Source: a virus. From it: a stretch of DNA of 64,000 nt. The stretch spans positions 1 to 64,000 of the IMG/VR virus record IMGVR_UViG_3300021181_000009. One strand, written 5' to 3'. The position numbers and the translations under genes were made by a program. Under the pieces are notes generated by a model. The model ran no database searches. It was not told the DNA's origin and was given only the letters and a program-made list of their open reading frames with translations. Within the stretch, counting starts at the first letter, position 1. The number at the start of each line of letters is the position of its first letter. Of this stretch, positions 1,183 to 30,597 are shown piece by piece.

Positions 1183-1779
1183 ATGAAAATAAATGAAATA
1201 GATCCAGGCGAAAAACAAACATTCGAACCCTCTAATACAGATTTGAGCAAAAGTTTTGGTAAATTTTTGTCTGATTGTAGTGAATCCATTGCTGCAATGC
1301 AAGCTACAAATACATTTTTATATAGGGGTATGTCGAATATTGTTTCTCCGGATATTTTCATTGGACGTTCAAGAGAACATAGAAATTCATTAACATTCAA
1401 GCCATCTGTATCGAAACAAATTGATAAACAATTTATAAAAGCTGGATTCAAAACTCATAGATCCAACTCAATTTTCTGTACTAGTTTGGCGGGTGTAGCA
1501 GTTACTTATGGTAGGCTTTATATGATTTTTCCCATCAATGGTTTTGATTTTGCTTGGAGCAGTGAAGTTTATGATTTTGCTACAAATAATCGGTTGGCTA
1601 CTATAGCTAACATTAATCCAAAAGAATTTGATCCGATTGAGTTCAGTTATTCAGACACTAACTTAAAGGGTGCATTAATGTCTGGTAAGGAAATAATGAT
1701 ACACGGAACTTATTATGCATTCAGATACTCAAAATATGGAAAAGGTTTATCTAAGGCATTGAAGGTTGCACTACCATGA
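1183..1779 (+). CDS. ART-like protein 1 (putative ADP-ribosyltransferase)
   Basis: 198 residues and the simplest member of a ten-gene family in this window. The ART-like order is visible: FLYRG with Arg48 (motif 1), RSNSIFCTS with Ser96 (motif 2, in place of S-T-S) and KEIMIHGTYYAF with Glu170 (motif 3, strand E-h-x-h-x-G as in E-V-L-L-P-x-G of known ARTs). Between them sits the family signature IFPINGFDFAWS. The position two before the Glu is Gly rather than Glu/Gln, so the target specificity or activity is unclear. The N-terminus MKINEIDPGEK contains I-x-E at residues 3-5, the motif cut by T4-type prohead protease. The stop overlaps the next start (ATGA). ART fold is inferred from motifs; capsid delivery is a hypothesis. 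Confidence 0.6.
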   Translation: MKINEIDPGEKQTFEPSNTDLSKSFGKFLSDCSESIAAMQATNTFLYRGMSNIVSPDIFIGRSREHRNSLTFKPSVSKQIDKQFIKAGFKTHRSNSIFCTSLAGVAVTYGRLYMIFPINGFDFAWSSEVYDFATNNRLATIANINPKEFDPIEFSYSDTNLKGALMSGKEIMIHGTYYAFRYSKYGKGLSKALKVALP

Positions 1780-2435
1780 AACTATTTGAACTAGATCCAG
1801 GCGAAAGGCAAGGTGTGCCGTATCATGGCATGGAACGTATAATTGACGTCCTAGAATCTGAATGTGGAGATGCATTGCAGGCAGTAAAAAGTGCTCACAG
1901 ATTTATATACCGCGGCGTAAAGGTAGGTGGTTCAAATGTAGGGACATTTTGGAAACCAAGACATTTGCAAGGTAGCGCACCAACTATCTTTAAATCATCA
2001 TCTAGAGAAAATAGAAAGCCAATGGATACTCCAGGGCAAATTCAAAATATGATTGATGGTGCTCTAGAAGCAACTGGGTTTAAAGCACTGCGAAGTAATT
2101 CAATATTTTGTTCTGGTTACAAAGCTGCTGCAATTAATTATGGTGTGCCGTATATTATTTTCCCTATCAATGGATTCGACTTTACTTGGTCAAGAAGATA
2201 TGCAGATTTATTTTCTGACGTTATCGATAATCTAACAGTAAATGATGGAGCTAGAGAACAATTTTTCGATCAATTCGAACATGATCCTGGCGAGTGGATT
2301 TTCGATATTGCAAAATATAATAACAGTGGTTTAGAAAACGCCATCAATTCTAATCATGAAATTATGATTAGAGGCGAATACTATGCAATACATCATCAAT
2401 TTGAACCTGTCTTAAAAAGCTATTTGATGTATTAA
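1776..2435 (+). CDS. ART-like protein 2 (putative ADP-ribosyltransferase)
   Basis: 219 residues, coupled to the preceding paralogue by an ATGA overlap. Motifs: FIYRG (Arg46), LRSNSIFCSG, IFPINGFDFTWS and HEIMIRGEYYAI (Glu195). It has an insertion of about 17 residues after the first Arg (from KVGGSNVGTFW) that the other members lack. The N-terminal tag MKLFELDPGER has L-x-E at residues 3-5. The Cys of SECGDAL matches the conserved Cys of the helix before motif 1 in its relatives. The two-gene unit is followed by a late promoter for the fibre-like genes. Function is inferred as for paralogue 1. Confidence 0.6.
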   Translation: MKLFELDPGERQGVPYHGMERIIDVLESECGDALQAVKSAHRFIYRGVKVGGSNVGTFWKPRHLQGSAPTIFKSSSRENRKPMDTPGQIQNMIDGALEATGFKALRSNSIFCSGYKAAAINYGVPYIIFPINGFDFTWSRRYADLFSDVIDNLTVNDGAREQFFDQFEHDPGEWIFDIAKYNNSGLENAINSNHEIMIRGEYYAIHHQFEPVLKSYLMY

Positions 2436-2452
2436 ATTTTGTCCATTTTGTT

Positions 2453-2460
2453 AATAAATA
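2453..2460 (+). promoter_or_regulatory. T4-type late promoter octamer (AATAAATA)
   Basis: AATAAATA 20 nt before the ATG of the virion protein gene at 2481, in the 45-nt gap after the ART-like pair. The spacing allows a short leader of about 14 nt. There is only a weak ribosome-binding site (TGGAAT). Confidence 0.5.
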
Positions 2461-2480
2461 CATAATATGGAATTGACAAA

Positions 2481-2900
2481 ATGACACAACAAATAATTAA
2501 TATAGGTTCAGCACCAAACGACGGAACGGGTGATAATCTTCGTTCTGGCATGACTAAGGTGAATGCAAACTTCACTGATCTTTATACAAATAAATTAGGT
2601 TTTACTGGTAACTCTGTAATAGTCGGTGGAAATGTAGATATTTCTGTTGTTGGTTCTGGCATCAAAGTTGCTGAAGGATCTAATGCAAAACAAGGAGTCG
2701 CTACTCTATCATCTGGAGTGATTGTTGTGCCAAATACTTCCGTCACAGCGACTAGCAGAATTTTCCTAACTGCACAAGATAATAATAGCACAGGTGTATT
2801 AAGAATTTCGTCTAGGACGCCAGGGGTATCATTTACGATCACCTCAAGTAATTCAGGGGATTCTGGTGTGATTGCTTACGAAATTTTCGAACAAGGTTAA
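2481..2900 (+). CDS. Tail/virion structural protein, short paralogue
   Basis: 139 residues. The N-terminus (MTQQIIN, then NDGTGDNLRSGMTKVNANFT) is the widespread start of structural and fibre proteins in T4-like phages, recognisable by DGTGD-x-LR and K-x-N-x-NF. The C-terminal 88 residues (from about residue 53, DISVVGSG, to EIFEQG) are nearly the same as the C-terminus of the next gene, with SNAKQGVATLSSG and LTAQDNNSTG. That looks like a beta-rich surface module. The pair arose by tandem duplication, and this copy lacks the central segment of its neighbour. Exact virion location is unknown. Confidence 0.65.
   Translation: MTQQIINIGSAPNDGTGDNLRSGMTKVNANFTDLYTNKLGFTGNSVIVGGNVDISVVGSGIKVAEGSNAKQGVATLSSGVIVVPNTSVTATSRIFLTAQDNNSTGVLRISSRTPGVSFTITSSNSGDSGVIAYEIFEQG
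2637..2900 (+). repeat. Tandemly duplicated C-terminal module (second copy 3278-3541)
   Basis: The last 264 bases of the gene at 2481 and the last 264 bases of the gene at 2903 are the same length, align without gaps, and encode closely similar residues from DIS to the final EIFEQG. Most differences are third-position changes. This marks gene duplication with purifying selection on the C-terminal domain. Confidence 0.75.
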
Positions 2901-2902
2901 AC

Positions 2903-3541
2903 ATGACACAACAAATAATCAATGTTGGAGCAACTTCCAACGACGGAACCGGCGATAAGTTACGATATAGTATGCAAAAAGTAAATGCAAATTTCACAGA
3001 TTTGTATTCTACTTCCTACGCATCAAATGTTTTAAATACTTTCAATACTAGAAGTGGGACAGTAACATTGCTTTCAGCAGACGTGAACGGCGCGTTAGGC
3101 TACACGCCATATAGTTCAACAGGTGGTATTGTGTCTGGTGCAGTTACTATAGGTTCTACTGCGGCATCAACATCTACTACCACTGGCGCACTGATTGTAG
3201 CGGGTGGTGCGGGTGTCGCAGGTGCAATTAATTCTGCATCCGTAACAACTAGTTTATTAACGGTTACAGGAAATATCGATATTTCTACAATTGGTGCTGG
3301 ATTGAAGGTCGCTGAGGGTTCCAATGCCAAACAAGGAGTCGCTACACTGTCTTCTGGAACGGTTCTTGTATCAAATACTTCAGTTACTGCAACTAGTAGA
3401 ATCCAGCTAACTGCACAAGATAATAATAGCACCGGGGCATTACGAGTGTCAGCAAGAACACCATTTACATCTTTCACTATCACATCTAGCAATGGAAGTG
3501 ATTCTGGTGTCGTCGCTTACGAAATCTTCGAACAAGGTTAA
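2903..3541 (+). CDS. Tail/virion structural protein, long paralogue
   Basis: 212 residues, starting 2 nt after the preceding paralogue stops. It has the same DGTGD-x-LR N-terminus and the same C-terminal module. Between them is a segment with FNTRSGTVTLLSADVNGALG, the repeated phage-fibre motif (TRxGxVTLxxxDVxxALG) of fibre shafts, followed by GALIVAGGAGVAGAI, also common in fibre and collar proteins. A late-expressed fibre or baseplate decoration protein is the best reading. Host-range involvement is possible but not shown. Confidence 0.65.
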   Translation: MTQQIINVGATSNDGTGDKLRYSMQKVNANFTDLYSTSYASNVLNTFNTRSGTVTLLSADVNGALGYTPYSSTGGIVSGAVTIGSTAASTSTTTGALIVAGGAGVAGAINSASVTTSLLTVTGNIDISTIGAGLKVAEGSNAKQGVATLSSGTVLVSNTSVTATSRIQLTAQDNNSTGALRVSARTPFTSFTITSSNGSDSGVVAYEIFEQG

Positions 3542-3573
3542 ACCACGTTTTTTCTCATGCCACATCTCTACTA

Positions 3574-3581
3574 GTTAAATA
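3574..3581 (+). promoter_or_regulatory. T4-type late promoter octamer (GTTAAATA)
   Basis: GTTAAATA (TAAATA at 3576-3581) in the 71-nt gap before the gene at 3613. A clear ribosome-binding site, TGGAGATG, sits 9 nt before that ATG, so this gene block would have a normal leader. Confidence 0.45.
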
Positions 3582-3612
3582 TCTGTATATAACTCAATGG
3601 AGATGTAGCAAC

Positions 3613-3852
3613 ATGTCAGATGTAACCACTCAACAAACAGCACCAGAATTAGGCGTCCAGGACCTTCAAACGGTTCTTGCAGTAATTGAACTTGCAAGCA
3701 CACGCGGAGCATTTAAGGGCGGCGAATTAAGTGCCGTCGGTCAAATTTTTGATAAAATCAATAATTTCGTAACAGCATTCACTAAACAAGCAGAGGAAGC
3801 CGCTGCAAATGAAGCACAACAAGAATCATCAACACCAGGAGAAGCACAGTGA
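3613..3852 (+). CDS. Small conserved phage protein, T4-like core set (function unknown)
   Basis: 79 residues, acidic, with a helical core (VQDLQTVLAVIELASTRGAF, then KGGELSAVGQIFDKINNFV) and an Ala/Glu/Gln-rich tail. From memory, short proteins with the LQDL-x-x-x-x-x-IE-x-A-x-x-RGAF pattern are conserved in aquatic T4-like phages, next to the relatives of the two following genes. No enzyme motif is visible. It begins after a good GGAG ribosome-binding site and overlaps the next gene by an ATGA-like junction, so the three small genes at 3613-4836 are probably one translation-coupled unit. Confidence 0.55.
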   Translation: MSDVTTQQTAPELGVQDLQTVLAVIELASTRGAFKGGELSAVGQIFDKINNFVTAFTKQAEEAAANEAQQESSTPGEAQ

Positions 3853-4517
3853 TAAAGCATATTGGTAGACATAACAATAAGAAAGTAATAATTTTGTATC
3901 GTGAAGTTCCTGAGGAAGCACATATGTGCCTCGTGACATATAGTGATGCTCTACCACGTAAGTATCATGATACTATCATGCCAATTCTTGAATCTCAACC
4001 TGGGCAAGCAGCAGACGTATTTGCAGAAGCATTGCACCGCAATTTATTGCATGATGGTCGCAACATTTTAGGTAGTTTGCACAAAGAAGGATTTATCAAG
4101 AAAGTCCCGACAAATCAAGTCATTGTAACAGCAACCCCGACTAGTCAAGTTCGTCTTGATGAATTGAATAACATTCTTTCTGAAATGCGAAAGGGTGAAG
4201 AAGCAATTAAGAAAATGGCTGATCTAGACTCAAATCGCGGCATGAATGGAAATAATAATCCATACAAACAAAAAGCACAAGATATCGCAGAACAATTTGA
4301 TGAGTCGCAAAGTGGTGTCGGTGTATTAGATGATACGTATTTTGCACAACAGAATCTAGCTCAAGCTGCTAGAATGAAAACTGAAGCGGAAGGTTTGCTA
4401 AAAGAGGCAGCGCGTTTGGAAGCGGAAGCAAAAAAGTTCCTTCCAGAAGAAAAAGAAGCAAAAGTAGTCAAGACACGAGCTCCTCGCAATGCCAAGAAAG
4501 TCTCAGTCCAAAGCTAA
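3849..4517 (+). CDS. Conserved T4-like phage protein (function unknown)
   Basis: 222 residues. The N-terminal 95 residues are globular (MIKHIGRHNNKKVIILYREV through KKVPTNQVIVT). Residues 105-215 are highly charged and probably coiled coil (EMRKGEEAIKKM and AARMKTEAEGLLKEAARLEA). The protein ends in a basic tail (KTRAPRNAKK). The N-terminal sequence resembles a protein conserved in T4-like cyanophages, as I remember it, but I know no assigned function. A long coiled coil beside small conserved genes would suit a virion or head-assembly role; that is a guess. Confidence 0.5.
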   Translation: MIKHIGRHNNKKVIILYREVPEEAHMCLVTYSDALPRKYHDTIMPILESQPGQAADVFAEALHRNLLHDGRNILGSLHKEGFIKKVPTNQVIVTATPTSQVRLDELNNILSEMRKGEEAIKKMADLDSNRGMNGNNNPYKQKAQDIAEQFDESQSGVGVLDDTYFAQQNLAQAARMKTEAEGLLKEAARLEAEAKKFLPEEKEAKVVKTRAPRNAKKVSVQS

Positions 4518-4836
4518 CGCAGGACCCAAAGCCCGGAAAATTTCAATCAACGCTAAAAAAGATTGGAAGAATATTCTCAAGCAGGTGGAGAAACAAGAAG
4601 TTCCCTTAGAATTTGTTAGATCGATTATGATAAAATTGATCGACGGGACGGATATCTCCATTGACGTCCCAGCTTTATTAGAATCTAGTGAAGCTGGGAC
4701 TGTGGAGGAATATCTTAATGAAAAATTTGCAGAACTGGATGCTTACATACAATCAGTAGACTTTTTTATAAATGTAGAATCTGTAACTACAATAGTCCAA
4801 TCATCAACAGACGAATTATTTAAAAAATTGTCATGA
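4489..4836 (+). CDS. Conserved T4-like phage protein (function unknown)
   Basis: 115 residues, overlapping the end of the previous gene by 29 nt in another frame. The start at 4489 is the only one that keeps the basic N-terminus (MPRKSQSKANAGPKARK). The body, with VPLEFVRSIMIKLIDGTDIS and FAELDAYIQSVDFFINVESV, is a small alpha/beta domain. I recall a similar protein beside relatives of the previous two genes in marine T4-like phages. No catalytic motif is seen. Its last codons overlap the start of the endonuclease gene at 4833 (ATGA), so the intruding gene is translationally coupled to it. Confidence 0.5.
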   Translation: MPRKSQSKANAGPKARKISINAKKDWKNILKQVEKQEVPLEFVRSIMIKLIDGTDISIDVPALLESSEAGTVEEYLNEKFAELDAYIQSVDFFINVESVTTIVQSSTDELFKKLS

Positions 4837-5705
4837 CAAAAAGAAAAACTACCGAAGAATTCATTTCTGAATGTATTTCTATTCATGAATTTAAGTATGA
4901 TTATTCTAAAACTAATTATATAAATGCTAAAACTAAGGTAGAAATTATTTGTTCTTCTCATGGTAGCTTTTGGAAAGTCGCTGAATCTCATACTAAATTG
5001 AAAATCGGTTGTCCTAAATGCAGCGGAAGGTATGTAACCAATACTGAAGAATTTATTAATAATTCTAAGAAACTTCACAATAATTACTACGATTATTCTA
5101 AAGTAAACTATGTCTCTAGTTTAATTAAAGTTGAAATTATATGCCCAATCCATGGTAGTTTTTGGCAAACACCTGGAAATCATTCTAGTAAAAAAGGATG
5201 CATTTCTTGTTTTGGTCATAAGAAATTATCTACAAAAGAATTTATTATTAAGGCAAATAATATTCACAATAATAGATATGACTATTCTGAAACCAATTAC
5301 GTCAGCAACAATAAGAAGGTTAAAATACACTGTAAAGAGCATGGAATATTTTTGCAAACTCCTGATAATCATTTGCATAAAAAGGGTTGCCCCTTATGTG
5401 TTTCTACTATCAGCAAATCTGAAACAACTTGGTTAGATTCGTTTGATAATCCGAAAATTATTAGACAATATCGTATTATAGTAGCTGAGGGCAAACATTT
5501 TAGAGTTGATGGATATGATCCCACAACAAATACTGTATATGAATATCACGGGAAATATTGGCATGGTCATCCAGATGTATTTCCTGACCGAAATGCTGTT
5601 CATCCAGTAAACAAAATACCAGCAATCAATCTATATGAACGAACGCTAGAAAAAGAACATCTTCTCAAAGATTTGGGATATAATCTCATTTCAGTCTGGG
5701 AATAA
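4833..5705 (+). CDS. Homing-type endonuclease: zinc-ribbon-like repeats plus Vsr-like nuclease domain (copy 2)
   Basis: 290 residues, with the same architecture as the gene at 221: three repeats with C-x2-HG and C-x2-C (EIICSSHG with CPKC, EIICPIHG with CISC, KIHCKEHG with CPLC), then a nuclease domain with FRVDGYDPTTNTVYEYHGKY and WHGHPDVFPDR. Its repeats follow the pattern H-x3-YDYS-x2-NY-x6-KV. It joins the stop of the preceding conserved gene by ATGA and lies 16 nt before DHFR. Nucleotide-metabolism and structural genes are classic homing sites in T4-like phages. The cleavage site is probably in a neighbouring gene; I cannot define it from one sequence. Confidence 0.75.
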   Translation: MTKRKTTEEFISECISIHEFKYDYSKTNYINAKTKVEIICSSHGSFWKVAESHTKLKIGCPKCSGRYVTNTEEFINNSKKLHNNYYDYSKVNYVSSLIKVEIICPIHGSFWQTPGNHSSKKGCISCFGHKKLSTKEFIIKANNIHNNRYDYSETNYVSNNKKVKIHCKEHGIFLQTPDNHLHKKGCPLCVSTISKSETTWLDSFDNPKIIRQYRIIVAEGKHFRVDGYDPTTNTVYEYHGKYWHGHPDVFPDRNAVHPVNKIPAINLYERTLEKEHLLKDLGYNLISVWE

Positions 5706-5721
5706 TCAAAAAGAGAAAATT

Positions 5722-6231
5722 ATGAAAGCTATATTTGCTGTTGACTCATCCGGCGGGATAGGCAACAAGGGGTCACTCCCTTGGCCAAAACACGCTGAAG
5801 ACCTAGTGTGGTTTAAAGAGCACACACTAAACAATATCGTTGTAATGGGAAAAAACACGTGGAAGGACAAGAAAATGCCCAAACCACTCAAAGATCGCAT
5901 CAATGTTGTTGTAACAAATAATCCACCTGAAGATGCTTTGGCTCGATATTCTACTCCAGACAATCTTACTGAAACACTGATAACTCTCAAAGAAAGTTTT
6001 CCTGAAAAAGAAATTTTTGTCATCGGTGGCAAACAAGTTCTAGAATGGCTAAGACCGGAAATCAAGACAATTTATTTGACACGCTTCAAGGGAAGGTATT
6101 ATACTGATACTAGATTAGACTTGAATTCCTTTTTAACAGGATTCCGTTTAATGTCAGTCAAACCAGGTGATAATTGCACCTTCGAGGTTTGGGAAAAAAT
6201 TACATTTCCATGGAAGGATAAAGAAGAATGA
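5722..6231 (+). CDS. frd: Dihydrofolate reductase
   Basis: 169 residues. It reduces dihydrofolate to tetrahydrofolate with NADPH and recycles the folate oxidised by thymidylate synthase. The N-terminus MKAIFAVDSSGGIGNKGSLP has the DHFR motif (IGNKGSLPWP). Glu/Asp-lined and cofactor motifs follow: VVMGKNTW (M-G-R/K-x-T), INVVVTN, and EIFVIGGKQV (the IGG NADPH motif). A weak ribosome-binding site AGAGAAA lies 8 nt before the ATG. The gene overlaps thymidylate synthase by 4 nt (ATGA). The pairing matches T4 frd-td, where both serve the dTMP cycle. Confidence 0.93.
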   Translation: MKAIFAVDSSGGIGNKGSLPWPKHAEDLVWFKEHTLNNIVVMGKNTWKDKKMPKPLKDRINVVVTNNPPEDALARYSTPDNLTETLITLKESFPEKEIFVIGGKQVLEWLRPEIKTIYLTRFKGRYYTDTRLDLNSFLTGFRLMSVKPGDNCTFEVWEKITFPWKDKEE

Positions 6232-9166: not shown

Positions 9167-9170
9167 TAGT

Positions 9171-10052
9171 ATGAGACTCTATGAACTTAAACCAGGCCAA
9201 AAGAAGGAATTTCACCCTTCAAACACTGAAGAACCTCAATCATTTACTACGTTTTTAACGAATTGTAGTGAATCTATTGCTGCTATGCGCGAAGCTAAAA
9301 GTTTTTTATATCGCGGAATAAAGAGTACAAAAGGTGATATATTTTTAGGGCGGCCCAGAGCTAATCGTAATGCTGTGGATACAAAAGGCTCTATTCAGAA
9401 AGAAGTAGATAAATTTTACACTGCTGCAGGGTTTACTGCATTACGATCTAATTCTATATTTTGTTGTGGTGATATCAACACCGCTATATCCTATGGTGAT
9501 CCATATATAATTTTTCCTATAAACGGATTTGCATTCACTTGGAGTCCTAAGATATATGATTTTTATGATTATATGCAAAGCAAAGATATCAATAACCCAA
9601 GTGATTTGTATTCCAATCAAGATGTATTAGATACAATCAGGAAATCTTCAGACCGTATAGCAAATAAACTCGATTCTATAATAATTAAACGACGTTTTGA
9701 TGATGTAGGTGATGAACTCTATTATATCAAGGTTTGGTTCAACGACATAAGTTATGAATATAATCCGAAAGAAATCCCAAAGTTTCTAATGAAAGCATCC
9801 AAAAAATGTTTTGATATAGAAAAAAAGTATAAAGTTGATCTTAAAACTATACATGCATATATTTCTGAAATTAATGAACTGCTGAAAACCACTATCCTGA
9901 CGTCGGATCAGGTTCTATCAAATTTACAATACACTGATAAGGATTTTGCTGCTGCACTAAAATCCAAAAAAGAAATAATTGTCAATGGTGAATATTATGC
10001 ATTCACGAATAATAAATATCACAAATATCTGTGGGATGCACTCATTAAATGA
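9171..10052 (+). CDS. ART-like protein 3 (putative ADP-ribosyltransferase) with insertion
   Basis: 293 residues. The motifs of the family are kept: FLYRG (Arg48), LRSNSIFCCG, IFPINGFAFTWS and KEIIVNGEYYAF (Glu268). About 95 extra residues lie between the TWS block and the Glu strand, mostly charged and predicted helical (from YDYMQSKDINNPSD to KTTILTSDQV). The gene at 14831 has a similar-sized insertion in the same place. The N-terminal tag MRLYELKPGQK has L-x-E at residues 3-5, and HPSNTE plus NCSESIAAM match paralogues 1, 7 and 9. First of a three-gene ATGA-coupled run. ART assignment is by motif only. Confidence 0.58.
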   Translation: MRLYELKPGQKKEFHPSNTEEPQSFTTFLTNCSESIAAMREAKSFLYRGIKSTKGDIFLGRPRANRNAVDTKGSIQKEVDKFYTAAGFTALRSNSIFCCGDINTAISYGDPYIIFPINGFAFTWSPKIYDFYDYMQSKDINNPSDLYSNQDVLDTIRKSSDRIANKLDSIIIKRRFDDVGDELYYIKVWFNDISYEYNPKEIPKFLMKASKKCFDIEKKYKVDLKTIHAYISEINELLKTTILTSDQVLSNLQYTDKDFAAALKSKKEIIVNGEYYAFTNNKYHKYLWDALIK

Positions 10053-10651
10053 AGTTATACGAATTAGAAATCCAACTTGGTGAGAAACAAGAGCTAACAC
10101 CAGAACTTAGTGAAACGTATATCGCACTTATTAAACGAGATTGCTCAGAAGCACTTGCGGCAATGAAAGCGACAGGAAGGTTTTTGTATCGTGGTGTTCC
10201 TGGGGCGACCTTAAGGGCATTTAAAGGTGCATCAAGAGAAAATCGCAGACCACTCTCAACTAAAGCACATTTCCAAGTATTGATTGATGAAATGTTATCT
10301 CATTATGGATTTAAAGCATTAAGATCAAATTCTATATACTGCACTTCTGCATACGAAGAAGCACAATATTATGAGAAGGGATCTGGACATTTGTATATGA
10401 TTTTTCCCATCAATGGATTTGATTACACTTGGAGCCGATATTCAGGTGATCTTTATGCTATGATGGGATCGTCAGATTATCAAACGTTGAATAATAGAGA
10501 TTTCGAAAGTTTTCAAGAAAAATTCCAATTTACAAACAAGTATCTGAATGATGCCTTGACAGCTGGACACGAAGTAATGGTCCATGGTCAATATTATGCA
10601 TTTTCTAACCTAATATATGGCTATAATTTTGATAAGGAATTATTAGAATGA
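10049..10651 (+). CDS. ART-like protein 4 (putative ADP-ribosyltransferase)
   Basis: 200 residues, overlapping its neighbours on both sides by ATGA. Motifs: FLYRG (Arg48), LRSNSIYCTS, IFPINGFDYTWS and HEVMVHGQYYAF (Glu175). The start tag is MKLYELEIQLGEK, two residues longer than the usual MKIYEIEAGEK but with L-x-E still at residues 3-5. The segment RDCSEALAAM keeps the family Cys before motif 1. KGASRENRRPLS matches the R/K-x-SREN/DR-x-x-x-S loop that recurs after motif 1 in most members. Confidence 0.58.
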   Translation: MKLYELEIQLGEKQELTPELSETYIALIKRDCSEALAAMKATGRFLYRGVPGATLRAFKGASRENRRPLSTKAHFQVLIDEMLSHYGFKALRSNSIYCTSAYEEAQYYEKGSGHLYMIFPINGFDYTWSRYSGDLYAMMGSSDYQTLNNRDFESFQEKFQFTNKYLNDALTAGHEVMVHGQYYAFSNLIYGYNFDKELLE

Positions 10652-11292
10652 AAATATACGAAATTGAAGCTGGTGCCAAAGAGAAGTTTGAATCGCCGAT
10701 TGAAAAAATTGTTCCGTTAATTCAACAACATTGTAGGCAAGCACTTTACGGAATGCAGCAGGCAAACAGATTTCTCTATCGAGGAGTAAAAAAGATGCCA
10801 GCAGTAGCATTCCTGGGCCAATCTAGGGAAAACAGAAGTCCATCAGCATCGTCAGCGACATTTCATAGAAACATTAATTTAGCTTTTGCTACAGCAGGAT
10901 TCGTTGCAAATAGATCCAATTCAATATTTGCAACGTCTGATAAAGGAGAAGCTGCTGGCTATGCATTAGGAAGCAGCAATAAACCATATATGATATTCCC
11001 CATAGACGGATTTAAATTTACTTGGAGTCCATCAATTCAGGATCTCTTTGTTAATGAATATGGTTTATTTGGGAATGGCCCGGAAGAATACTTAAAGAGA
11101 ATGAAATTCTATTACGAGGATGATGCTGACCCAGAACTTATCAACGAATTTTTATGGAAATCAGAATATACTGATAAAGATTTCGGAGCAGCAGTTAGTT
11201 CACGCAATGAAATAATGATCCATGGCCAATATTATGCGGTTAGTACTGAATTCGAAGATTGGCCAGAGTTTAGACAACTCATTGGTTCTTGA
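10648..11292 (+). CDS. ART-like protein 5 (putative ADP-ribosyltransferase)
   Basis: 214 residues. Motifs: FLYRG (Arg45), NRSNSIFATS (Ala where most members have Cys), IFPIDGFKFTWS and NEIMIHGQYYAV (Glu188). Tag MKIYEIEAGAK with I-x-E at residues 3-5. The final 14 nt overlap, tail to tail, the end of the minus-strand gene at 11279, with no terminator between them, so the two transcripts must run into each other. Function inferred as for the family. Confidence 0.58.
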   Translation: MKIYEIEAGAKEKFESPIEKIVPLIQQHCRQALYGMQQANRFLYRGVKKMPAVAFLGQSRENRSPSASSATFHRNINLAFATAGFVANRSNSIFATSDKGEAAGYALGSSNKPYMIFPIDGFKFTWSPSIQDLFVNEYGLFGNGPEEYLKRMKFYYEDDADPELINEFLWKSEYTDKDFGAAVSSRNEIMIHGQYYAVSTEFEDWPEFRQLIGS

Positions 11293-14170
11293 AATATTCA
11301 TCCAACCACGCCCACTCAAAACTTAACAACAATTTATTCAATTCGCCATTGACACTTTCATAATATGTGATAGCGTCTTTTGCACCTTTAAGGCACATAT
11401 CTGCATTCTCGCCTTCGGCAACATTCAACCAAATATCCAATCTTTCTTTTGCAATATAGTCGCCATTGTCTGCAAAGTATCTAAGCTTCAAACTTTCCCT
11501 AAAAGATGTGCGCCAACATACTTTACTATCTTTATTAAAATGACTCGTTCCACTAAGCATAGGAACAACATCGTGCAACGAAGAAAGCGTAAAATCTAAT
11601 CCGTGATTATCATCCATACTCAATACCGTATTCTTGTGGTATGCGATAATTGCCTGATGGCCATATTCTAATCCATTGACAGGATTCTTTGCATGAAAAA
11701 TATAGTGGCGTGGCATGCGAAGTCGGTCTGGTTGCCAATTAAAATCAAAATTCGTATCAATCTCTAACTTAGCAAATACATTGAATGCCCAATTTGTTTC
11801 ACTAGCATTCGATGCTGCCTTATATGCTGCTGATCGACCATTTACACCATCGACCCTAACGATACGATTTTTGAAACCTTTATCTATAACGTATTCATTA
11901 AGCTTCAACCACATATCATCTGCCATCGATTCACCATTGCTAATGAATACAATATCAAGTGGTTTGCTTTTATACCAATCTTTCTTATCTATCGTAATGA
12001 ATGGATAGTCGTATATTTGAGAATTGAAATAGTTCTTAACGTCTTTTGGCACCAATGCAAACTCTGCACCATCACTCAATACATGCACCGATCTATCTTT
12101 ACCTGACCATAGATTTGGCGTGTATGTAAGCACGCCCCCTTCATATTTTTTAGGCAAAAACAATGCATAATTAGTAGAAAAAACGTGATTTTCGACTACT
12201 TGAGGCAAGGTTTCTTCAGTAAATCGTACAGTTTCAACGTCATACCTATTAACTGGCTGCACTGATACGTAATTCACTGTTTTAAAGTCCTCTAACTTAC
12301 TAATTTGCTGTCTCTGCGCTTTAAATTCAGTTACTGGAACATAAAATGTATCGCCATACTTCTGATCGTTACTAGGAAATACATGTAACATATTATGTTG
12401 CCAAGCACTTGGGTGCCAGCTAAAGTCAAATGTGGAATAATCACAAATACTTGAGATAACCCAAATATGTTTTGTCTCAGATTGATTGGCACAACGAGTT
12501 ATAGCATCCAAATAATTATCAACAAATCGCATCGTTTTTATATTAGAATATTTTTGCTTTAGAATATCTAATTGTGTTTTGCTTTCTGGATTGAAATGAT
12601 CTAGATACCAAATATCAATTTGTTCTTCACTATTATCCACTGTTTGATTCTTGACAAAATTAAGATTTGGCCAATCTTTGATATCATTGCACCATGTTCT
12701 GTTTCTGTTTAACTCAAACTTAGACAATAGAATTGAATCAGTCCATTTATCCCATTTACTACCGAACACATGTGTCATAGATAGTTCCCATGGTTCTGGG
12801 GACCAACTGAAATCAAATTCATCATAAACAAATTCACTACTGATAATCCAGAATCTATCTGTATTACATTTATTAGCACAACGAATTGCTGTTTGTTGTA
12901 AATTATTAACGAATCTCGTTTTTTGTAGCTGCGGATATTTGTTCTTTAATGATTCAAATCTTTCAGTACTTTCTTTGTTACCTTTGTCTAAAAAGAACAT
13001 ATCAAGTGATGCTGTATTTGTTGTTTTAATATCCGCAACATAGTTAATACTTGTATTACCGGCTAGATATGACGGTGCATTAACAAAATATGTTTCACTG
13101 TGTTGTTGCCATTGTGACGCAAATACATGAACAAGATCAATTTGACTTTTATCTGGGTGCCAACTGAAATCAAATTCATCATAATTTAAATCTTTACTCA
13201 ATGCCCAAAACTTTTCAGTAGGATGTTCGCTTATTAAATCTTCTAATGTAGATAGTATGAAATAGCGAGGGGAATTAATACCACTATAAAAAACCCGTAT
13301 ATCATTGATATAATTGCATCCACGAGGCGCGGTTGTTCCTGCGAAATATGAAGTTTCAGAAGTTTTTTGCCATTGTGAAGGGAAGACATGTTTATAATCC
13401 TTTTGACTTTCATCTGGATGCCATGAGAAATCAAACGTAAAATAATCTGCGTTAGGATCAAGCGTCCAATATTGCATTTCAGGTATTGCTTTAGCTTTTA
13501 ACTGTGGGACATATTTTTCTTGTGTCGCATTCTTTACAACGTATGTCGGACCACCTGTAGCTTGCCACTGCGTTCCAAATTTATAAATATATGGAGGGTC
13601 ATTAGGATGTGGGCACCAACTGAAATCAAAGCTACTCTTATCGATATTAGCGGGAACAATCCAGCCGCCAATTGGAATAGTTTTTGCACGCAACTCATCG
13701 TGGAATTTTGGAGCAACTGCTTTAATACAATGATATTCGGGTCCCCCAATGTCCCACCATACCGTACCGAATATGTGAATGTAAGGTGGCTCGTCTGGGT
13801 CAGGGTGCCAGGAGAAGTCGAAACTATCTACATCTATATTTTCAGGGACTACCCAGTTTTCGACACACGATTTCCTAACAACTCGTTGCTCAGTTCTATA
13901 ATTTTTAATTAAATTTGATTCAGTTAGATTTGCCGGAATGAGATACGTTCCAGCATTGCGCTGCCACTGCGAACCAAACACGTGAGTGTGATGCTGTTCC
14001 CATTTAGGTGGCATCCAATAAAAATCAAAATTATCATAATCTGTATCTGCTGTAATCACCCAACAAAACTTAGTTCTGCTTTGTTTTGCAGCATCGAAAA
14101 TATCTACTGCGTATTTTTCATGTGGAAATAGATTTGGTTTAGTAGAAGTGGTGTAGAATACGTCGAACAT
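11279..14170 (-). CDS. 963-residue repeat protein built from degenerate GT-A glycosyltransferase-like units
   Basis: Eight copies of a block FDF-[SYN]-W-x-P are visible at about 60-190-residue intervals (FDFYWMP, FDFSWHPDPD, FDFSWCPHPN, two FDFSWHPD, FDFSWSPEPW, FDFSWHPSAW, FDFNWQPD). Most are followed by HVF-x-S-x-W-Q. The C-terminal 230 residues (LDIVFISNGES, VRVDGVNGRSAAYKAASNAS, KNPVNGLEYGHQAI) align by eye with the intact glycosyltransferase-like protein at 35864-36802, but the DGDN metal motif of that protein is replaced (VFAKLE). The repeats look like copies of the same half-domain with the DxD lost. A glycan-binding or scaffold role is possible; catalytic activity is doubtful. It lies inverted within the ART array and starts 5 nt after a TAAATA octamer. 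Confidence 0.55.
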   Translation of the reverse strand: MFDVFYTTSTKPNLFPHEKYAVDIFDAAKQSRTKFCWVITADTDYDNFDFYWMPPKWEQHHTHVFGSQWQRNAGTYLIPANLTESNLIKNYRTEQRVVRKSCVENWVVPENIDVDSFDFSWHPDPDEPPYIHIFGTVWWDIGGPEYHCIKAVAPKFHDELRAKTIPIGGWIVPANIDKSSFDFSWCPHPNDPPYIYKFGTQWQATGGPTYVVKNATQEKYVPQLKAKAIPEMQYWTLDPNADYFTFDFSWHPDESQKDYKHVFPSQWQKTSETSYFAGTTAPRGCNYINDIRVFYSGINSPRYFILSTLEDLISEHPTEKFWALSKDLNYDEFDFSWHPDKSQIDLVHVFASQWQQHSETYFVNAPSYLAGNTSINYVADIKTTNTASLDMFFLDKGNKESTERFESLKNKYPQLQKTRFVNNLQQTAIRCANKCNTDRFWIISSEFVYDEFDFSWSPEPWELSMTHVFGSKWDKWTDSILLSKFELNRNRTWCNDIKDWPNLNFVKNQTVDNSEEQIDIWYLDHFNPESKTQLDILKQKYSNIKTMRFVDNYLDAITRCANQSETKHIWVISSICDYSTFDFSWHPSAWQHNMLHVFPSNDQKYGDTFYVPVTEFKAQRQQISKLEDFKTVNYVSVQPVNRYDVETVRFTEETLPQVVENHVFSTNYALFLPKKYEGGVLTYTPNLWSGKDRSVHVLSDGAEFALVPKDVKNYFNSQIYDYPFITIDKKDWYKSKPLDIVFISNGESMADDMWLKLNEYVIDKGFKNRIVRVDGVNGRSAAYKAASNASETNWAFNVFAKLEIDTNFDFNWQPDRLRMPRHYIFHAKNPVNGLEYGHQAIIAYHKNTVLSMDDNHGLDFTLSSLHDVVPMLSGTSHFNKDSKVCWRTSFRESLKLRYFADNGDYIAKERLDIWLNVAEGENADMCLKGAKDAITYYESVNGELNKLLLSFEWAWLDEYFKNQ

Positions 14171-14174
14171 AAAT

Positions 14175-14186
14175 ATATTTAAATAT
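14175..14186. promoter_or_regulatory. Divergent late promoters fused in a palindrome (ATATTTAAATAT)
   Basis: A perfect 12-bp palindrome between divergent genes. It reads TAAATA on both strands: minus 14181-14176, 5 nt before the ATG at 14170, and plus 14180-14185, 13 nt before the ATG at 14199. The same layout occurs at 25531-25544. Two RNA polymerases could not bind both octamers at once, so the two directions should compete. Confidence 0.5.
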
Positions 14187-14198
14187 GCATATTATAAC

Positions 14199-14834
14199 AT
14201 GAAAATAAACGAAATAACAGATAATCCCAAAGCCGATGATGCTGAAATTGATGCTTTAGTAAAAACAATTCGCACTGAATGTAGCCAATTTATTCCCTAT
14301 GTAGTTGAAGCCCGTTATGCATTATATCGCGGCTTGCAAGTCGGAACAAAATGGCATAGCTTTGTTACTAAACAACGACAAATCCCGTTAGCATTCGTAG
14401 GAAAATCTATAAGCCGTTACGGTAGTGGTGTATCGCCCACCGAAAAAGAATTTGATAATTTATTGTTAAATGCTGGATTTACTGCACTAAGATCAAATTC
14501 AATCTATACGACAGGTGATCAGCACGTAGCTGAAGGATATGGTGAAATGTATGAGATTCTTCCGAAGAACGGATTTACATACACTTGGGCTCCAGGTGCA
14601 GGTAAAGATAATGTATATATTGTAGAAACTATCAATGATATTTTAAAAAGTGGCAATACAGATCCAGAAAACGTTAGACAATATCTATCCGATACAAATT
14701 TGGCACAAGCAATAAAGCAAGGAACTGAAATATACATACATGGTGAATATTATGCATTTTCAAGATGGAAAATGCGGAGAGTGCTTGATAAATTGTGGAA
14801 CGAAGAATTTCATCCAGGACGGGTAATTCAATGA
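14199..14834 (+). CDS. ART-like protein 6 (putative ADP-ribosyltransferase), divergent member
   Basis: 211 residues, the most divergent of the ten. Motif 1 is ALYRG (Arg44), motif 2 is LRSNSIYTTG with Thr in place of Cys, the central block is ILPKNGFTYTWA, and motif 3 is TEIYIHGEYYAF (Glu177). Tag MKINEITDNPK has I-x-E at residues 3-5 but lacks the PGEK that usually follows. It starts a five-gene run (14199-17607) of overlapping paralogues read from the divergent promoter at 14175-14186. Confidence 0.55.
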   Translation: MKINEITDNPKADDAEIDALVKTIRTECSQFIPYVVEARYALYRGLQVGTKWHSFVTKQRQIPLAFVGKSISRYGSGVSPTEKEFDNLLLNAGFTALRSNSIYTTGDQHVAEGYGEMYEILPKNGFTYTWAPGAGKDNVYIVETINDILKSGNTDPENVRQYLSDTNLAQAIKQGTEIYIHGEYYAFSRWKMRRVLDKLWNEEFHPGRVIQ

Positions 14835-15784
14835 AAATAAATGAAATTGATTTGGAACCAGGACAAAAACAACGATTTGATCCTTCAAACACAGACTATG
14901 AAAGAAGTTTCGATAAATTTCTTTTAGATTGTAGTGATTCCATCGCAGCGATGAGGCAAGCAAAGCAACTTTTATATAGGGGGATAAAAACAAAAGTCCC
15001 TGATATTTTTGTTGGTATACCACGACAAGATAGGAGTCCATTGGACACCCCTAAGGGACATAATGAACAAATCAATACTCTCATGTCCAAAGCAGGATTT
15101 ACTGCAATAAGAACCAACTCTATATTTTGTTCAGGTTCAGTTTGGGAAACTGGAATGTATGGAAAAAATTACATCATCTTTCCTAAAAATGGATTTGATT
15201 TTACGTGGAGCACTAAGATAGATGATTTAACGCGCTACTTATCTTTAAATCGTACTAACTTTTCACAATATGGATTCCAAGCATATTCTGATACTTTTCA
15301 AAAATATAGAATTGCAGGGTTCAATGTAACATCTTATATGCGACAAATAATCCATGAAGTTAATAACTTACCTTATGGCTCTCCTGAAAGAAAAGGCGGT
15401 GAAAAACTAGGAGGTCTCATTGCAAATACTCAAAACTATTACAAGATGGATCTACAAACCAATACTTATATGTTTCCATCTGCAAAAGATGCTAAAAAAA
15501 TTGCTGCTGCGGTCGTCGCATACAATTCAATGTACAAGCAAAATATAGGTGAGAAATTGATGGACCACTTACCTGACTATATTCAATACGCAACTGCCAT
15601 GCAGAATCCGCAAAAGAATATTCATCCAAAAGACGTTATGCAAGGTATGGGTTATAAGTCAGATGATTTTACAGCGGCGCTTAACTCATTACATGAGATT
15701 CTGATTAAAGGTGAATACTATGCCTTTAATAAAGACAAATACTATTACGAACTAAGAGAAAAGATACTCTATGAAAATAAATGA
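14831..15784 (+). CDS. ART-like protein 7 (putative ADP-ribosyltransferase) with insertion
   Basis: 317 residues from ATG 14831, which overlaps the preceding stop as ATGA. An in-frame GTG at 14795 would add 12 residues inside the previous gene and would break the conserved MKINEI start, so I reject it. Motifs: LLYRG (Arg50), IRTNSIFCSG, IFPKNGFDFTWS and HEILIKGEYYAF (Glu289). About 120 extra residues between the TWS block and the Glu strand make it the longest member; they carry MRQIIHEVNNLPYGSPERK and a helical stretch. Tag MKINEIDLEPGQK. The insertion may recognise a different target. Confidence 0.58.
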   Translation: MKINEIDLEPGQKQRFDPSNTDYERSFDKFLLDCSDSIAAMRQAKQLLYRGIKTKVPDIFVGIPRQDRSPLDTPKGHNEQINTLMSKAGFTAIRTNSIFCSGSVWETGMYGKNYIIFPKNGFDFTWSTKIDDLTRYLSLNRTNFSQYGFQAYSDTFQKYRIAGFNVTSYMRQIIHEVNNLPYGSPERKGGEKLGGLIANTQNYYKMDLQTNTYMFPSAKDAKKIAAAVVAYNSMYKQNIGEKLMDHLPDYIQYATAMQNPQKNIHPKDVMQGMGYKSDDFTAALNSLHEILIKGEYYAFNKDKYYYELREKILYENK

Positions 15785-16370
15785 AATAGATCCTGGTGAA
15801 AAAATTGATATAAGTGATACAAATAATATTTATCATTTTATCGATCTAATTCATACTCATTGTTCAGAAGCTATTGCCGGAATGAAGCAAGCCAATAAAT
15901 TTCTGTATAGGGGGATAAATGGGGTGCCATCTATGTTTCATGGAAAACCTAGGTCCGACAGACAACCGACCAATAAAAATCGTACGGAATCACAGAAAAT
16001 GTTTGATATTGCACTAGCAAAACAAGGAATAGAAGCTAACCGTTCAAATTCTATATTTTGTTCTGGAAGCGTAACTCAAGCTATGATCTATGGATTAGAT
16101 GATAATGACGTTTATTGCATATTTCCCACAAATGGATTTAAGTTTGTCTGGAGTCCGAAAGTCAGAGATATAGTTAATGATCCAGACTATAATTGGCGAA
16201 ATCGTTACGAACAAGAATTTTATGATCGATATGTCATAAGGAAAGATTACACAAATCAAGCCTTAGGAGAAGCAATTAAGTCTGGTCATGAAATCATGAT
16301 TGCTGGAGAATATTATGCAATCCGTAGCAATCTTGCTGGCGGTGTTTTTTGGAAATATTTAGTCAAATGA
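15771..16370 (+). CDS. ART-like protein 8 (putative ADP-ribosyltransferase)
   Basis: 199 residues, overlapping the end of the previous paralogue by 14 nt. Motifs: FLYRG (Arg47), NRSNSIFCSG, IFPTNGFKFVWS and HEIMIAGEYYAI (Glu174). Tag MKINEIDPGEK, identical in its first eleven residues to paralogue 1 at 1183. THCSEAIAGM keeps the family Cys. The loop GKPRSDRQPTNK matches the R-x-x-R-x-x loop of its relatives. Confidence 0.58.
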   Translation: MKINEIDPGEKIDISDTNNIYHFIDLIHTHCSEAIAGMKQANKFLYRGINGVPSMFHGKPRSDRQPTNKNRTESQKMFDIALAKQGIEANRSNSIFCSGSVTQAMIYGLDDNDVYCIFPTNGFKFVWSPKVRDIVNDPDYNWRNRYEQEFYDRYVIRKDYTNQALGEAIKSGHEIMIAGEYYAIRSNLAGGVFWKYLVK

Positions 16371-16945
16371 AAATATACGAAATAGAAGCTGGTGAGAAAC
16401 AAAAATTTGAGCCGTCTAATTCAGATGAAAATAGAACGTTTCAAAAGTTCCTTTCTGATTGTAGTGATTCTATTGCTGCAATGCAATCTGCAAATAAATT
16501 TATATTCCGTGGTACATCCTCTTTTCCAAGTGAAATATTCATCGGAAAATCTAGAGATAATAGAAATTCACTAAGCTATGTTCGGGAAGAAAGTAAGATA
16601 ATAGATTTCCAATTTGAACAAGACGGATTTGATGCTAGGCGCACCAATTCTATTTTTTGCAGCGGGTCTGGTCCAGAGGCGGGTAGTTATGGTAAGCTTT
16701 ATATGATTTTCCCCATCAACGGATTTAAATTTACATGGAGCCCAATGGTTGTTGATTTCGCTACAAATGCAAGCATTAATAAACATTTATCACATTTTCA
16801 TCCACTAAGTTATGGCTACACAAATAAGAATTTAGTTGCGGCCATAAAATCAAAAAATGAAATAATGATTAATGGATCCTACTATGCATTTTCCTTCAAA
16901 GAATACTGGAAGCCATTATCTGAATATTTTGGGTTTAAAAAATGA
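16367..16945 (+). CDS. ART-like protein 9 (putative ADP-ribosyltransferase)
   Basis: 192 residues from ATG 16367 (ATGA overlap). An in-frame TTG at 16349 is rejected because it would displace the conserved tag. Motifs: FIFRG (Arg48; Phe for the usual Tyr), RRTNSIFCSG, IFPINGFKFTWS and NEIMINGSYYAF (Glu165). Tag MKIYEIEAGEK. Overall it is closest to paralogue 1: both share EPSN, the DCS-[ED]-SIAAMQ helix, FIGKSRDNRNSL / FIGRSREHRNSL and a short segment after TWS. One probably arose from the other although they are 15 kb apart. Confidence 0.58.
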   Translation: MKIYEIEAGEKQKFEPSNSDENRTFQKFLSDCSDSIAAMQSANKFIFRGTSSFPSEIFIGKSRDNRNSLSYVREESKIIDFQFEQDGFDARRTNSIFCSGSGPEAGSYGKLYMIFPINGFKFTWSPMVVDFATNASINKHLSHFHPLSYGYTNKNLVAAIKSKNEIMINGSYYAFSFKEYWKPLSEYFGFKK

Positions 16946-17607
16946 AAATATATGAAATAGAAGCTGGTGACAGAAATCCTGTAACAGATGGTGCAGATGA
17001 AAAAATTATTGAACTTCTAACTACAGAATGTAGTGATGCTATTTCAGCTATGCAACAAGCAAAAACATTTTTGTATAGAGGATTTAAAGATGCTGCTAAT
17101 GTGCCAGAAGCGTTCCATGGCAGACCAAGAGAAGATAGACGAACATTACATTCTAATCCGAAAGTTCAAATTGCATTTGATGAAAATATGAAAGTATATG
17201 GCTTTGCTACTAATAGATCAAATTCAATATTTTGCACTTCTGTAAAAAAGAGAACTAGTTTATATGGCTATCCGTATCTAATCTTTCCTAAGAATGGATT
17301 TAATTTTCTTTGGAGTCCTGACGTTCATGACCTATTTTCTGCGCCGCATATTGATAGTTGGGCTGAAACAATCCTGAAAACTTCGAACAAGGAAGCAGCA
17401 GCACAAGAGTTTGTTAGACGTTTCAAATATACTGATAATAACTTTGTTTCTGCATTAGAGAAGGGGAATGAAATTATGGTAAGTGGTGAATATTATGCAT
17501 TCTCTGCTAAGAATACAAGCGAGATATTCAAAAACCATTATGGTGATAAGATTAATTTTGAAACTATCCTTTCTGCAACATTTAAGATCCCGGTGCAGGG
17601 TGATTAA
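16942..17607 (+). CDS. ART-like protein 10 (putative ADP-ribosyltransferase)
   Basis: 221 residues, the last member of the run. Motifs: FLYRG (Arg46), NRSNSIFCTS, IFPKNGFNFLWS and NEIMVSGEYYAF (Glu177). Tag MKIYEIEAGDR. It has a C-terminal extension of about 18 residues past the usual end (ILSATFKIPVQGD). Its TAA (17605-17607) shares two bases with the minus-strand TAA (17604-17606) of the frameshifted deaminase tail, so the two genes meet stop on stop with no spare DNA. Confidence 0.58.
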   Translation: MKIYEIEAGDRNPVTDGADEKIIELLTTECSDAISAMQQAKTFLYRGFKDAANVPEAFHGRPREDRRTLHSNPKVQIAFDENMKVYGFATNRSNSIFCTSVKKRTSLYGYPYLIFPKNGFNFLWSPDVHDLFSAPHIDSWAETILKTSNKEAAAQEFVRRFKYTDNNFVSALEKGNEIMVSGEYYAFSAKNTSEIFKNHYGDKINFETILSATFKIPVQGD

Positions 17608-30304: not shown

Positions 30305-30597
30305 TATAAGTGTTTAATTATGAATTCTAGTGCTTCTTTTTCGCAATCGAAGACTAAAATGATTCTTGAGTAAAGGGATGTTCCAGCAAATCCCTGAGGA
30401 TAAATCGGAGTTTCTAATTCTAATTTTGATCTTACAGATTTTCCTTGAAGGAAATTTGATTGTGCAGTAGTTAGCCACATGCGAGTTTCGAAACATAGTG
30501 AATCATTTTCTACTGTTTTCATTTCAGTATATGCACCTGGCCATGAGGCGTCTAGATTGATTCTATTCCATGATTTCAAAACTACTTCAGTTGCCAT
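30304..30597 (-). CDS. Small companion protein a (shared C-terminal motif)
   Basis: 97 residues from ATG 30597 (ATGA overlap with the upstream small gene); a TTG one codon earlier is not needed. The C-terminal IILVFDCEKEALEFIIKHL matches the ends of the small proteins at 30597 and 32121: hydrophobic strand, F-[DE], then D/E-A-x-x-F. No Cys-rich or leader-like core of a RiPP precursor is visible. Position between radical SAM genes suggests a partner or regulator; this is inference. Confidence 0.5.
   Translation of the reverse strand: MATEVVLKSWNRINLDASWPGAYTEMKTVENDSLCFETRMWLTTAQSNFLQGKSVRSKLELETPIYPQGFAGTSLYSRIILVFDCEKEALEFIIKHL

What the first reader, a model, noticed from the sequence alone, without database searches (positions are those of the whole stretch)
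1183..17607. Ten tandem ART-like paralogues in one phage region
Ten genes (1183, 1776, 9171, 10049, 10648, 14199, 14831, 15771, 16367, 16942) share, in order, [FLI]-[YF]-RG, R-[ST]-NSI-[FY], I-[FL]-P-x-[ND]-GF-x-[FY]-x-W-[SA] and E-[IV]-x-[IV]-x-G-x-YYA. R, then S, then E is the ADP-ribosyltransferase order. T4 has three ARTs (Alt, ModA, ModB) that modify host RNA polymerase and other proteins. Ten in one region would be a striking expansion, perhaps an arms race over host targets. Two members carry about 100-residue insertions at the same site. The residue two before the Glu is not Glu/Gln, so it is not a textbook arginine-ART; this may be a new clade.
Basis: partly seen in the sequence, partly recalled or inferred. 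Interest (0 to 1): 0.9.

Follow-up and report, generated by a model that had tools for sequence, protein, structure and literature searches.

The report
Expanded family of likely injected phage proteins
This virus of bacteria carries ten (in a fuller assembly eleven) related genes whose products begin with a tag like the one phage T4 uses to load proteins into its head, so they are probably injected into the host, but a calibrated structure test does not confirm that they are ADP-ribosyltransferases.

Summary
The ten paralogues are real: three ATGA-overlapped clusters (2+3+5 genes), 29-55% identical. The ART label is not confirmed. The AF2 model of g1 is excellent (pLDDT 93.5), yet Foldseek finds no ART in the PDB. 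A poorer control model of the T4 Alt ART domain (72.6) finds 129 chains at E<=0.001, the 50 best all ADP-ribosylating enzymes. Profile comparison with Alt/ModA/ModB is at noise; Pfam, NCBIfam and PADLOC show no ART. The R-S-E order, its strand positions and R-to-His swaps keep a remote ART-like clade possible (about 35%).

New results:
(1) All ten start M[KR][IL]xE[IL]; 114/144 distinct family leaders have a T4-protease-type [LI]xE in the first 12 residues (7.6% at internal Met). A matrix from these leaders ranks, among 242 T4 N-termini, gp24, gp2, ipIII and ipII first to fourth. Unrelated enzymes nearby share the leader.
(2) The family is expanded in many large phages (11 tandem in Agrobacterium phage Atu_ph07, inside a virion-protein gene cluster).
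(3) A zeta-toxin-like kinase sits beside a family gene in 12/12 lineages tested (chance about 1e-9) and is fused to the domain in others.

Best reading: virion-packaged, injected host-takeover enzymes of unknown chemistry.

The parts
1183..1779 (+). family member g1, 198 aa, leader MKINEI; modelled by AF2 (pLDDT 93.5)
1776..2435 (+). family member g2, 219 aa, leader MKLFEL; overlaps g1 by ATGA
9171..10052 (+). family member g3, 293 aa, leader MRLYEL; about 100-residue insertion before the Glu strand
10049..10651 (+). family member g4, 200 aa, leader MKLYEL
10648..11292 (+). family member g5, 214 aa, leader MKIYEI
14199..14834 (+). family member g6, 211 aa, leader MKINEI; most divergent copy
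14831..15784 (+). family member g7, 317 aa, leader MKINEI; about 100-residue insertion at the same site as g3
15771..16370 (+). family member g8, 199 aa, leader MKINEI
16367..16945 (+). family member g9, 192 aa, leader MKIYEI
16942..17607 (+). family member g10, 221 aa, leader MKIYEI
1183..1200 (+). example of the N-terminal leader (M-K-I-N-E-I); the same element opens all ten genes and resembles T4 capsid-targeting/prohead-protease propeptides

Best explanation
A lineage-expanded family of about 200-residue phage proteins that are loaded into the capsid during assembly and injected with the DNA, like T4 internal proteins and Alt. Step 1 (inferred from sequence): the N-terminal leader M[KR][IL]xE[IL] targets each protein to the prohead core and is trimmed by a gp21-type protease that cuts after [LI]xE. 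Step 2 (inferred): the mature globular domain enters the host with the DNA. Step 3 (inferred): it acts on a host macromolecule or defence factor through a pocket built from near-invariant Arg67, Arg93-x-Asn-Ser96 and Glu170 (plus Arg/His48 and Cys32); paralogues divide the targets. The chemistry is open: NAD-dependent ADP-ribosyl transfer by a remote ART-like clade is the leading single guess but was not confirmed. A zeta-like P-loop kinase works with at least one longer member of the family, as a neighbour or as part of the same protein.
For: Leader: 10/10 window genes begin M[KR][IL]xE[IL], with [IL]xE at residues 3-5. Across the family 114/144 distinct leaders hold [LI]xE within 12 residues against 46/608 at internal Met. 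A weight matrix from family leaders (T4 and Atu_ph07 left out) ranks T4 gp24 (cleaved by gp21) 1st, gp2 DNA end protector 2nd, ipIII 3rd, ipII 4th and Alt 9th of 242 N-termini; 2 of 2000 column-permuted matrices do as well on gp24, ipIII, ipII and Alt. The motif opens 124/160 family genes and 95/716 non-family genes in the same loci, against 4.4% at internal Met; non-family carriers include zeta-like kinases, an NT5C nucleotidase and DUF6267. T4 gp21 cuts after L/I-X-E and the first 10 residues of IPIII suffice for packaging (PMC9026906). The four records with a strong gp23-type capsid match also have the S77 prohead protease. In Atu_ph07 eleven tandem members, starting M[KR][WL]xxLxE, are gp53-gp63, inside cluster CDS 31-76 with 29 mass-spectrometry-identified virion proteins. 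Selection: dN/dS 0.08-0.32 against a related phage. Copy number changes quickly: 10 here, about 6 in a relative 83-97% identical over aligned stretches. Kinase: adjacent in 12/12 lineages, fused in Atu_ph07 and L059.
Against: No direct proof that any member is in a virion: the Atu_ph07 protein list is in a supplement that could not be opened, so the evidence is at cluster level only. Atu_ph07 members score low with the leader matrix, because their leader is M[KR]W.QL.E. Some long family members lack an obvious leader (e.g. L009:344-1642, MTDKIKKL). The window contig does not show head genes. Conserved residues suggest an enzyme, but no activity or ligand is known. Similarity of a 6-10 residue leader could partly reflect common ancestry inside the family.
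Confidence: 0.6

Rival explanations
1. They are a new, very divergent ADP-ribosyltransferase clade: Arg/His48 on strand 1 and Glu170 hold NAD and the Ser96 region supports it; each modifies a different host protein, like T4 Alt, ModA and ModB. (This can be true together with packaging.)
For: R/H-S-E order with ART-like local contexts (LYRG, LYHGS; A..YG; E.....G.Y); similar one-dimensional order of strands and helices around R, S, E as in the Alt model; R replaced by His in 5/93, as between ART clades; a forced ModA/ModB alignment puts LYRG and EIMI-G on LWRG/LYRG and E-x-MIP-G. One member is fused to a nucleotidyltransferase-like domain.
Against: Foldseek PDB search negative with a pLDDT 93.5 model while the Alt control is strongly positive; profile comparison at noise; no ART family in Pfam, NCBIfam or PADLOC for 93 members; no QxE/ExE; T4 itself gives no match to the family profile.
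Confidence: 0.35
2. The family is one half of a two-enzyme module with the zeta-like kinase (modification and phosphorylation of a nucleotide, RNA or DNA target, or a toxin/antidote pair) and the leader is secondary.
For: Kinase adjacent to a family gene in 12/12 lineages and fused in Atu_ph07 gp53 and L059; PHROG 12810 is this fusion. The kinase is zeta/PezT-like.
Against: One kinase per locus against many family copies; the pair lies in several relative orientations (often convergent); in the window contig itself no kinase is found, it appears only in the longer assembly next to the eleventh member.
Confidence: 0.2
3. They are structural or decoration proteins of the virion with no enzymatic role, expanded for capsid or whisker architecture.
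For: Virion-rich gene neighbourhood in Atu_ph07, a phage described as having whisker- or hair-like structures.
Against: Polar residues (R67, R93, N95, S96, E170) conserved across members as low as about 20-30% identical, fusions to kinase and nucleotidyltransferase-like domains, and copy-number turnover look like effectors rather than structure.
Confidence: 0.1

Closest known systems
PHROG 11975, 12810 and 15932 (unknown function)
   Same: All ten proteins match phrog_11975 (E 1e-18 to 1e-33), and most also 12810 and 15932; PHROG 12810 contains the family domain fused to a zeta-like kinase.
   Different: These PHROGs carry no function; neither the leader, the expansion nor the kinase link is recorded there.
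T4 internal proteins IPII/IPIII, Alt and gp24 (capsid-targeted or gp21-processed)
   Same: Short N-terminal leader with [LI]xE; the family's leader matrix retrieves gp24, ipIII and ipII from T4.
   Different: Globular domain shows no similarity to Alt by fold or profile; packaging and cleavage not shown.
T4 Alt / ModA / ModB ADP-ribosyltransferases
   Same: Order R, S, E; LYRG motif; Alt is packaged and injected.
   Different: No detectable fold similarity to solved ARTs and no profile similarity; no E/Q two before the Glu; extra near-invariant R67, R93 and C32.
Agrobacterium phage Atu_ph07 gp53-gp63
   Same: Eleven tandem homologues with leader M[KR][WL]xxLxE; gp53 also holds the kinase.
   Different: 250-780 aa, partly a more divergent branch; annotated hypothetical.
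Zeta toxin / PezT kinases
   Same: Partner kinase belongs to this P-loop superfamily (Pfam Zeta_toxin E 4e-15; ZETA and PezT chains in the PDB).
   Different: Often carries the phage leader and sits beside or inside family proteins; substrate unknown.

Membership tests
ADP-ribosyltransferase (R-S-E clade) | ART fold (split beta-sandwich) similar to solved ARTs | tested here: not met
   No PDB match at E<=0.001 with a pLDDT 93.5 model; Alt control positive, 129 chains
ADP-ribosyltransferase (R-S-E clade) | Catalytic Arg at strand 1 | tested here: inconclusive
   LYRG at strand 47-50; R 80, H 5, S 5, K 3 of 93
ADP-ribosyltransferase (R-S-E clade) | STS-type motif before strand 2 | tested here: inconclusive
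   R-S-N-S96 precedes strand 97-100; S96 in 91/93, but not STS
ADP-ribosyltransferase (R-S-E clade) | ExE or QxE with catalytic Glu | tested here: not met
   Single Glu170 (87/93); position -2 is mostly G, N, K
ADP-ribosyltransferase (R-S-E clade) | Profile similarity to Alt, ModA, ModB or an ART family model | tested here: not met
   hhalign scores within noise; Pfam, NCBIfam, PADLOC negative
ADP-ribosyltransferase (R-S-E clade) | NAD binding and ADP-ribosyl transfer | not testable with these tools
   Needs biochemistry
T4-type capsid-targeted internal proteins | Short N-terminal targeting leader with L/I-X-E | tested here: met
   10/10 in the window; 114/144 family leaders vs 7.6% null; matrix retrieves T4 gp24, ipIII, ipII
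T4-type capsid-targeted internal proteins | Leader shared by unrelated cargo proteins | tested here: met
   95/716 neighbours carry it vs 4.4% null; they include kinases, a nucleotidase, DUF6267
T4-type capsid-targeted internal proteins | gp21-type prohead protease in the same phage | tested here: met
   In relatives: S77 protease in all four records with a strong gp23 match. Not testable for the window phage, whose contig lacks the head module
T4-type capsid-targeted internal proteins | Protein present and cleaved in the virion | tested here: inconclusive
   Only cluster-level mass spectrometry for Atu_ph07 gp53-gp63 (PMC6102473)
Zeta toxin (partner kinase) | P-loop kinase with Zeta_toxin profile | tested here: met
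   Pfam PF06414 E 3.7e-15 (L009) and 3.1e-13 (L016); activity not tested

The most novel reading that the evidence does not exclude
A new enzyme fold, unlike any solved structure, that large T4-like phages have multiplied to a dozen or more copies as an injected arsenal, carried by a portable capsid-targeting tag that also marks other injected enzymes (kinases, nucleotidases), with a zeta-like kinase as a conserved partner.
Probability: 0.3. Interest if true: 0.85.

Novelty: new variant of a known kind. Interest (0 to 1): 0.62.

Why it matters
If the leader is a capsid-targeting sequence, the injected protein repertoire of many large uncultured phages can be read directly from N-termini, including proteins of unknown function. 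It turns an unnamed family into a testable set of first-minute host-takeover or counter-defence effectors, shows rapid copy-number turnover between close phages, and links the family to a zeta-like kinase. It also corrects a plausible ART annotation that a calibrated fold test does not support, and it predicts that T4 gp2 bears the same kind of leader.

Tried and rejected
Profile search of PDB sequences with 10 and 93 family members: nothing relevant. Pfam on ten proteins, then on 93 members: only scattered weak hits (one DRAT hit at E 0.13 in g8, judged chance). hhalign with T4 Alt/ModA/ModB looked suggestive (E 0.04, motifs in register), but a null of 135 phage ORFs and a reversed profile gives equal or higher scores, so it was dropped as evidence. 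Scan of 85,000 bacterial/archaeal genomes for cellular relatives: none, so no bridge to annotated cellular ARTs. Alignment A2 was too diverse for pattern scans. A T4 late-promoter-like xxTAAATA lies near g1, g3, g6 and gp6, but in AT-rich DNA this is weak and was left out of the argument. The sister jumbo phage paper (PMC11242549) does not list which Atu_ph07 proteins were seen in virions. The leader matrix does not rank the Atu_ph07 members high, since their leader is a W/Q variant.
Full report
WHAT IS THERE. The window is the first 64 kb of a 71 kb IMG/VR virus record from a large T4-like phage: ORFs at 57-63 kb look like T4 baseplate proteins by size and content (my reading), and a 4425-aa ORF is like in size to the 4449-aa structural protein of Atu_ph07. 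All pairs are homologous (29-55% identity). A near-identical second assembly (99.95%) reaches 8.8 kb further upstream and holds an eleventh member and a zeta-like kinase.

HOW WIDESPREAD. One scan of IMG/VR gave 57 loci; ORF search of these gave 116 distinct family proteins. Counts per record run up to 22 match pieces (some genes give two pieces), in 18 of 18 records searched. Named phages: Agrobacterium phage Atu_ph07 has 11 tandem members plus one match elsewhere, Salicola phage SCTP-2 has 14 matches scattered over its genome. No relative was found in 85,000 cellular genomes by pattern scan. So multi-copy expansion is a repeated property of the family, not a peculiarity of this phage. Between the window phage and a relative that is 83-97% identical over its aligned stretches, the third cluster has five genes against two, and the totals are 10 against about 6. 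Orthologous or closest pairs show dN/dS of 0.08-0.32, so the copies are under purifying selection. In the tree, window copies g2, g3, g4, g5, g10 each pair with a copy of that relative, g1 and g9 are sisters, and g6 falls among distant phages.

IS IT AN ART? AlphaFold2 with 93 sequences gives pLDDT 93.5, pTM 0.89. In that model R48 lies in the first strand of the main domain (47-50), S96 precedes strand 97-100, and E170 precedes strand 171-174, and the order of elements resembles that of the Alt model. But Foldseek against the PDB returns nothing at E<=0.001 and no ART among the 50 rows shown other than two PARP1 chains at E 4.9 with rmsd 14.7. Against predicted viral proteins the significant hits (28 at E<=0.001) are phage proteins of unknown function, many of them Atu_ph07 members of this family. 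To calibrate, the ART domain of T4 Alt was modelled from 24 sequences; the model is poor (pLDDT 72.6), yet 129 PDB chains match at E<=0.001, the 50 best all ADP-ribosylating enzymes. Profile-profile comparison with Alt, ModA and ModB is not above the noise of unrelated phage ORFs and of a reversed profile. Pfam, NCBIfam and PADLOC scans of the 93 members show no ART family. Membership in the R-S-E ART clade therefore fails the tests that could be run. A remote ART-like clade is still possible: the control belongs to a clade with many solved members, and His at the Arg position (LYHGS) echoes the R/H exchange between ART clades. I put it at about 0.35.

THE N-TERMINUS. Every window member starts M[KR][IL][NYF]E[IL]. 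In Atu_ph07 the eleven tandem members start M[KR][WL]xxLxE. Elsewhere in the family: MKSYEFLSE, MRYHEILPE, MKAYEILRE, MKLWDLLE. T4 gp21 cuts after L/I-X-E and the first ten residues of IPIII are sufficient for packaging (PMC9026906); IPII and IPIII begin MKTYQEFIAE. Three tests were made. (a) 114 of 144 distinct family leaders hold [LI]xE within 12 residues, against 46 of 608 internal methionines of the same proteins. (b) A weight matrix from the family's leaders, with T4 and Atu_ph07 left out, was run on 242 T4 N-termini: ranks 1-4 are gp24 (vertex protein, cleaved by gp21), gp2 (DNA end protector), ipIII and ipII; Alt with its true start is 9th. Only 2 of 2000 column-permuted matrices do as well on gp24, ipIII, ipII and Alt (ipII and ipIII share their leader, so they are not independent). 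(c) The motif opens 77% of family genes, 13% of unrelated genes in the same loci and 4.4% of internal methionine sites; the unrelated carriers include zeta-like kinases, an NT5C nucleotidase, DUF6267, DUF4116 and Gp88-type proteins. A short N-terminal element shared by unrelated proteins is what a targeting tag looks like. The four records with a strong gp23 match also have the S77 prohead protease.

VIRION EVIDENCE. In Atu_ph07 the tandem members are CDS 53-63; the numbering was checked against gp2, gp128 and gp132 of the paper. They lie inside CDS 31-76, one of three clusters that hold most mass-spectrometry-identified virion proteins, 29 in this cluster (PMC6102473). This is support, not proof.

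THE KINASE. In 12 representative lineages a zeta-toxin-like P-loop kinase is the immediate neighbour of a family gene in all 12; from the fraction of non-family genes that are neighbours in each locus, chance is about 1e-9. (One further locus, L038, has a kinase 5 kb away.) In Atu_ph07 gp53 and in L059/L061 kinase and family domain are one protein, and PHROG 12810 is that fusion. The kinase keeps the P-loop and matches ZETA and PezT. It often carries the same leader. One family member (L019) is instead fused to a nucleotidyltransferase-like domain with HPWSAGH and ISSASKIR motifs (domain name is my reading, Pfam is silent).

HOW IT MOST LIKELY WORKS. Shown: the paralogues, their spread, the conserved residues, the leader and its match to T4 head proteins, the kinase link. 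Inferred: packaging, cleavage, injection, enzymatic action on host targets. Open: the chemistry. Iyer et al. (PMC9503650) argue that ARTs and related enzymes are often packaged in myoviruses and note at least ten ARTs in phage G; the main text does not mention Atu_ph07. The role proposed here is the same; the family is not shown to be theirs.

NOVELTY AND INTEREST. PHROGs list the family as unknown. I found no paper describing the leader, the expansion or the kinase pairing, within an open-access library only. I rate it a new variant of a known kind (packaged T4-type effectors), interest 0.62.

Noticed in passing
T4 NC_000866 76061-76885 (L125, L149): T4 gp2 (DNA end protector) starts MAIFQIINEST and is the second best match of 242 T4 N-termini to the leader matrix; it may be an unrecognised capsid-targeted or protease-trimmed protein.
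   Followed up: partly
L009:1672-2418; L016:6988-7716; L033:10995-11798; L034:11010-11762; L051:13975-14688; L052:1623-2627: Zeta-toxin-like kinases, most with the same leader, beside the family genes, often in convergent orientation.
   Followed up: yes
L019:1630-3231; L040:6036-6686: Nucleotidyltransferase-like protein (FPGGFH...GH and ISSASKIR motifs) fused to the family domain in L019, and a separate leader-bearing gene in L040; Pfam does not recognise it.
   Followed up: partly
L009:344-1642: Eleventh member of the same phage, 433 aa, without the usual leader, convergent with the kinase gene.
   Followed up: partly
window 11279-14170 (-): 963-aa ORF between clusters 2 and 3 with repeated FDFSWHPD-like units; function unknown.
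   Followed up: no
window 26401-35329: Run of about six radical-SAM-like genes (cysteine-motif proteins), followed by glycosyltransferase-like genes at 35864-38798.
   Followed up: no
window 221-1105, 4833-5705, 40113-40988: Three related Vsr/treble-clef-type endonuclease-like ORFs, possible mobile homing genes.
   Followed up: no
L098:9201-13925 (-): 1575-aa leader-bearing ORF with a Gp88 domain near its C-terminus, in the same stretch of that contig as further family matches.
   Followed up: partly
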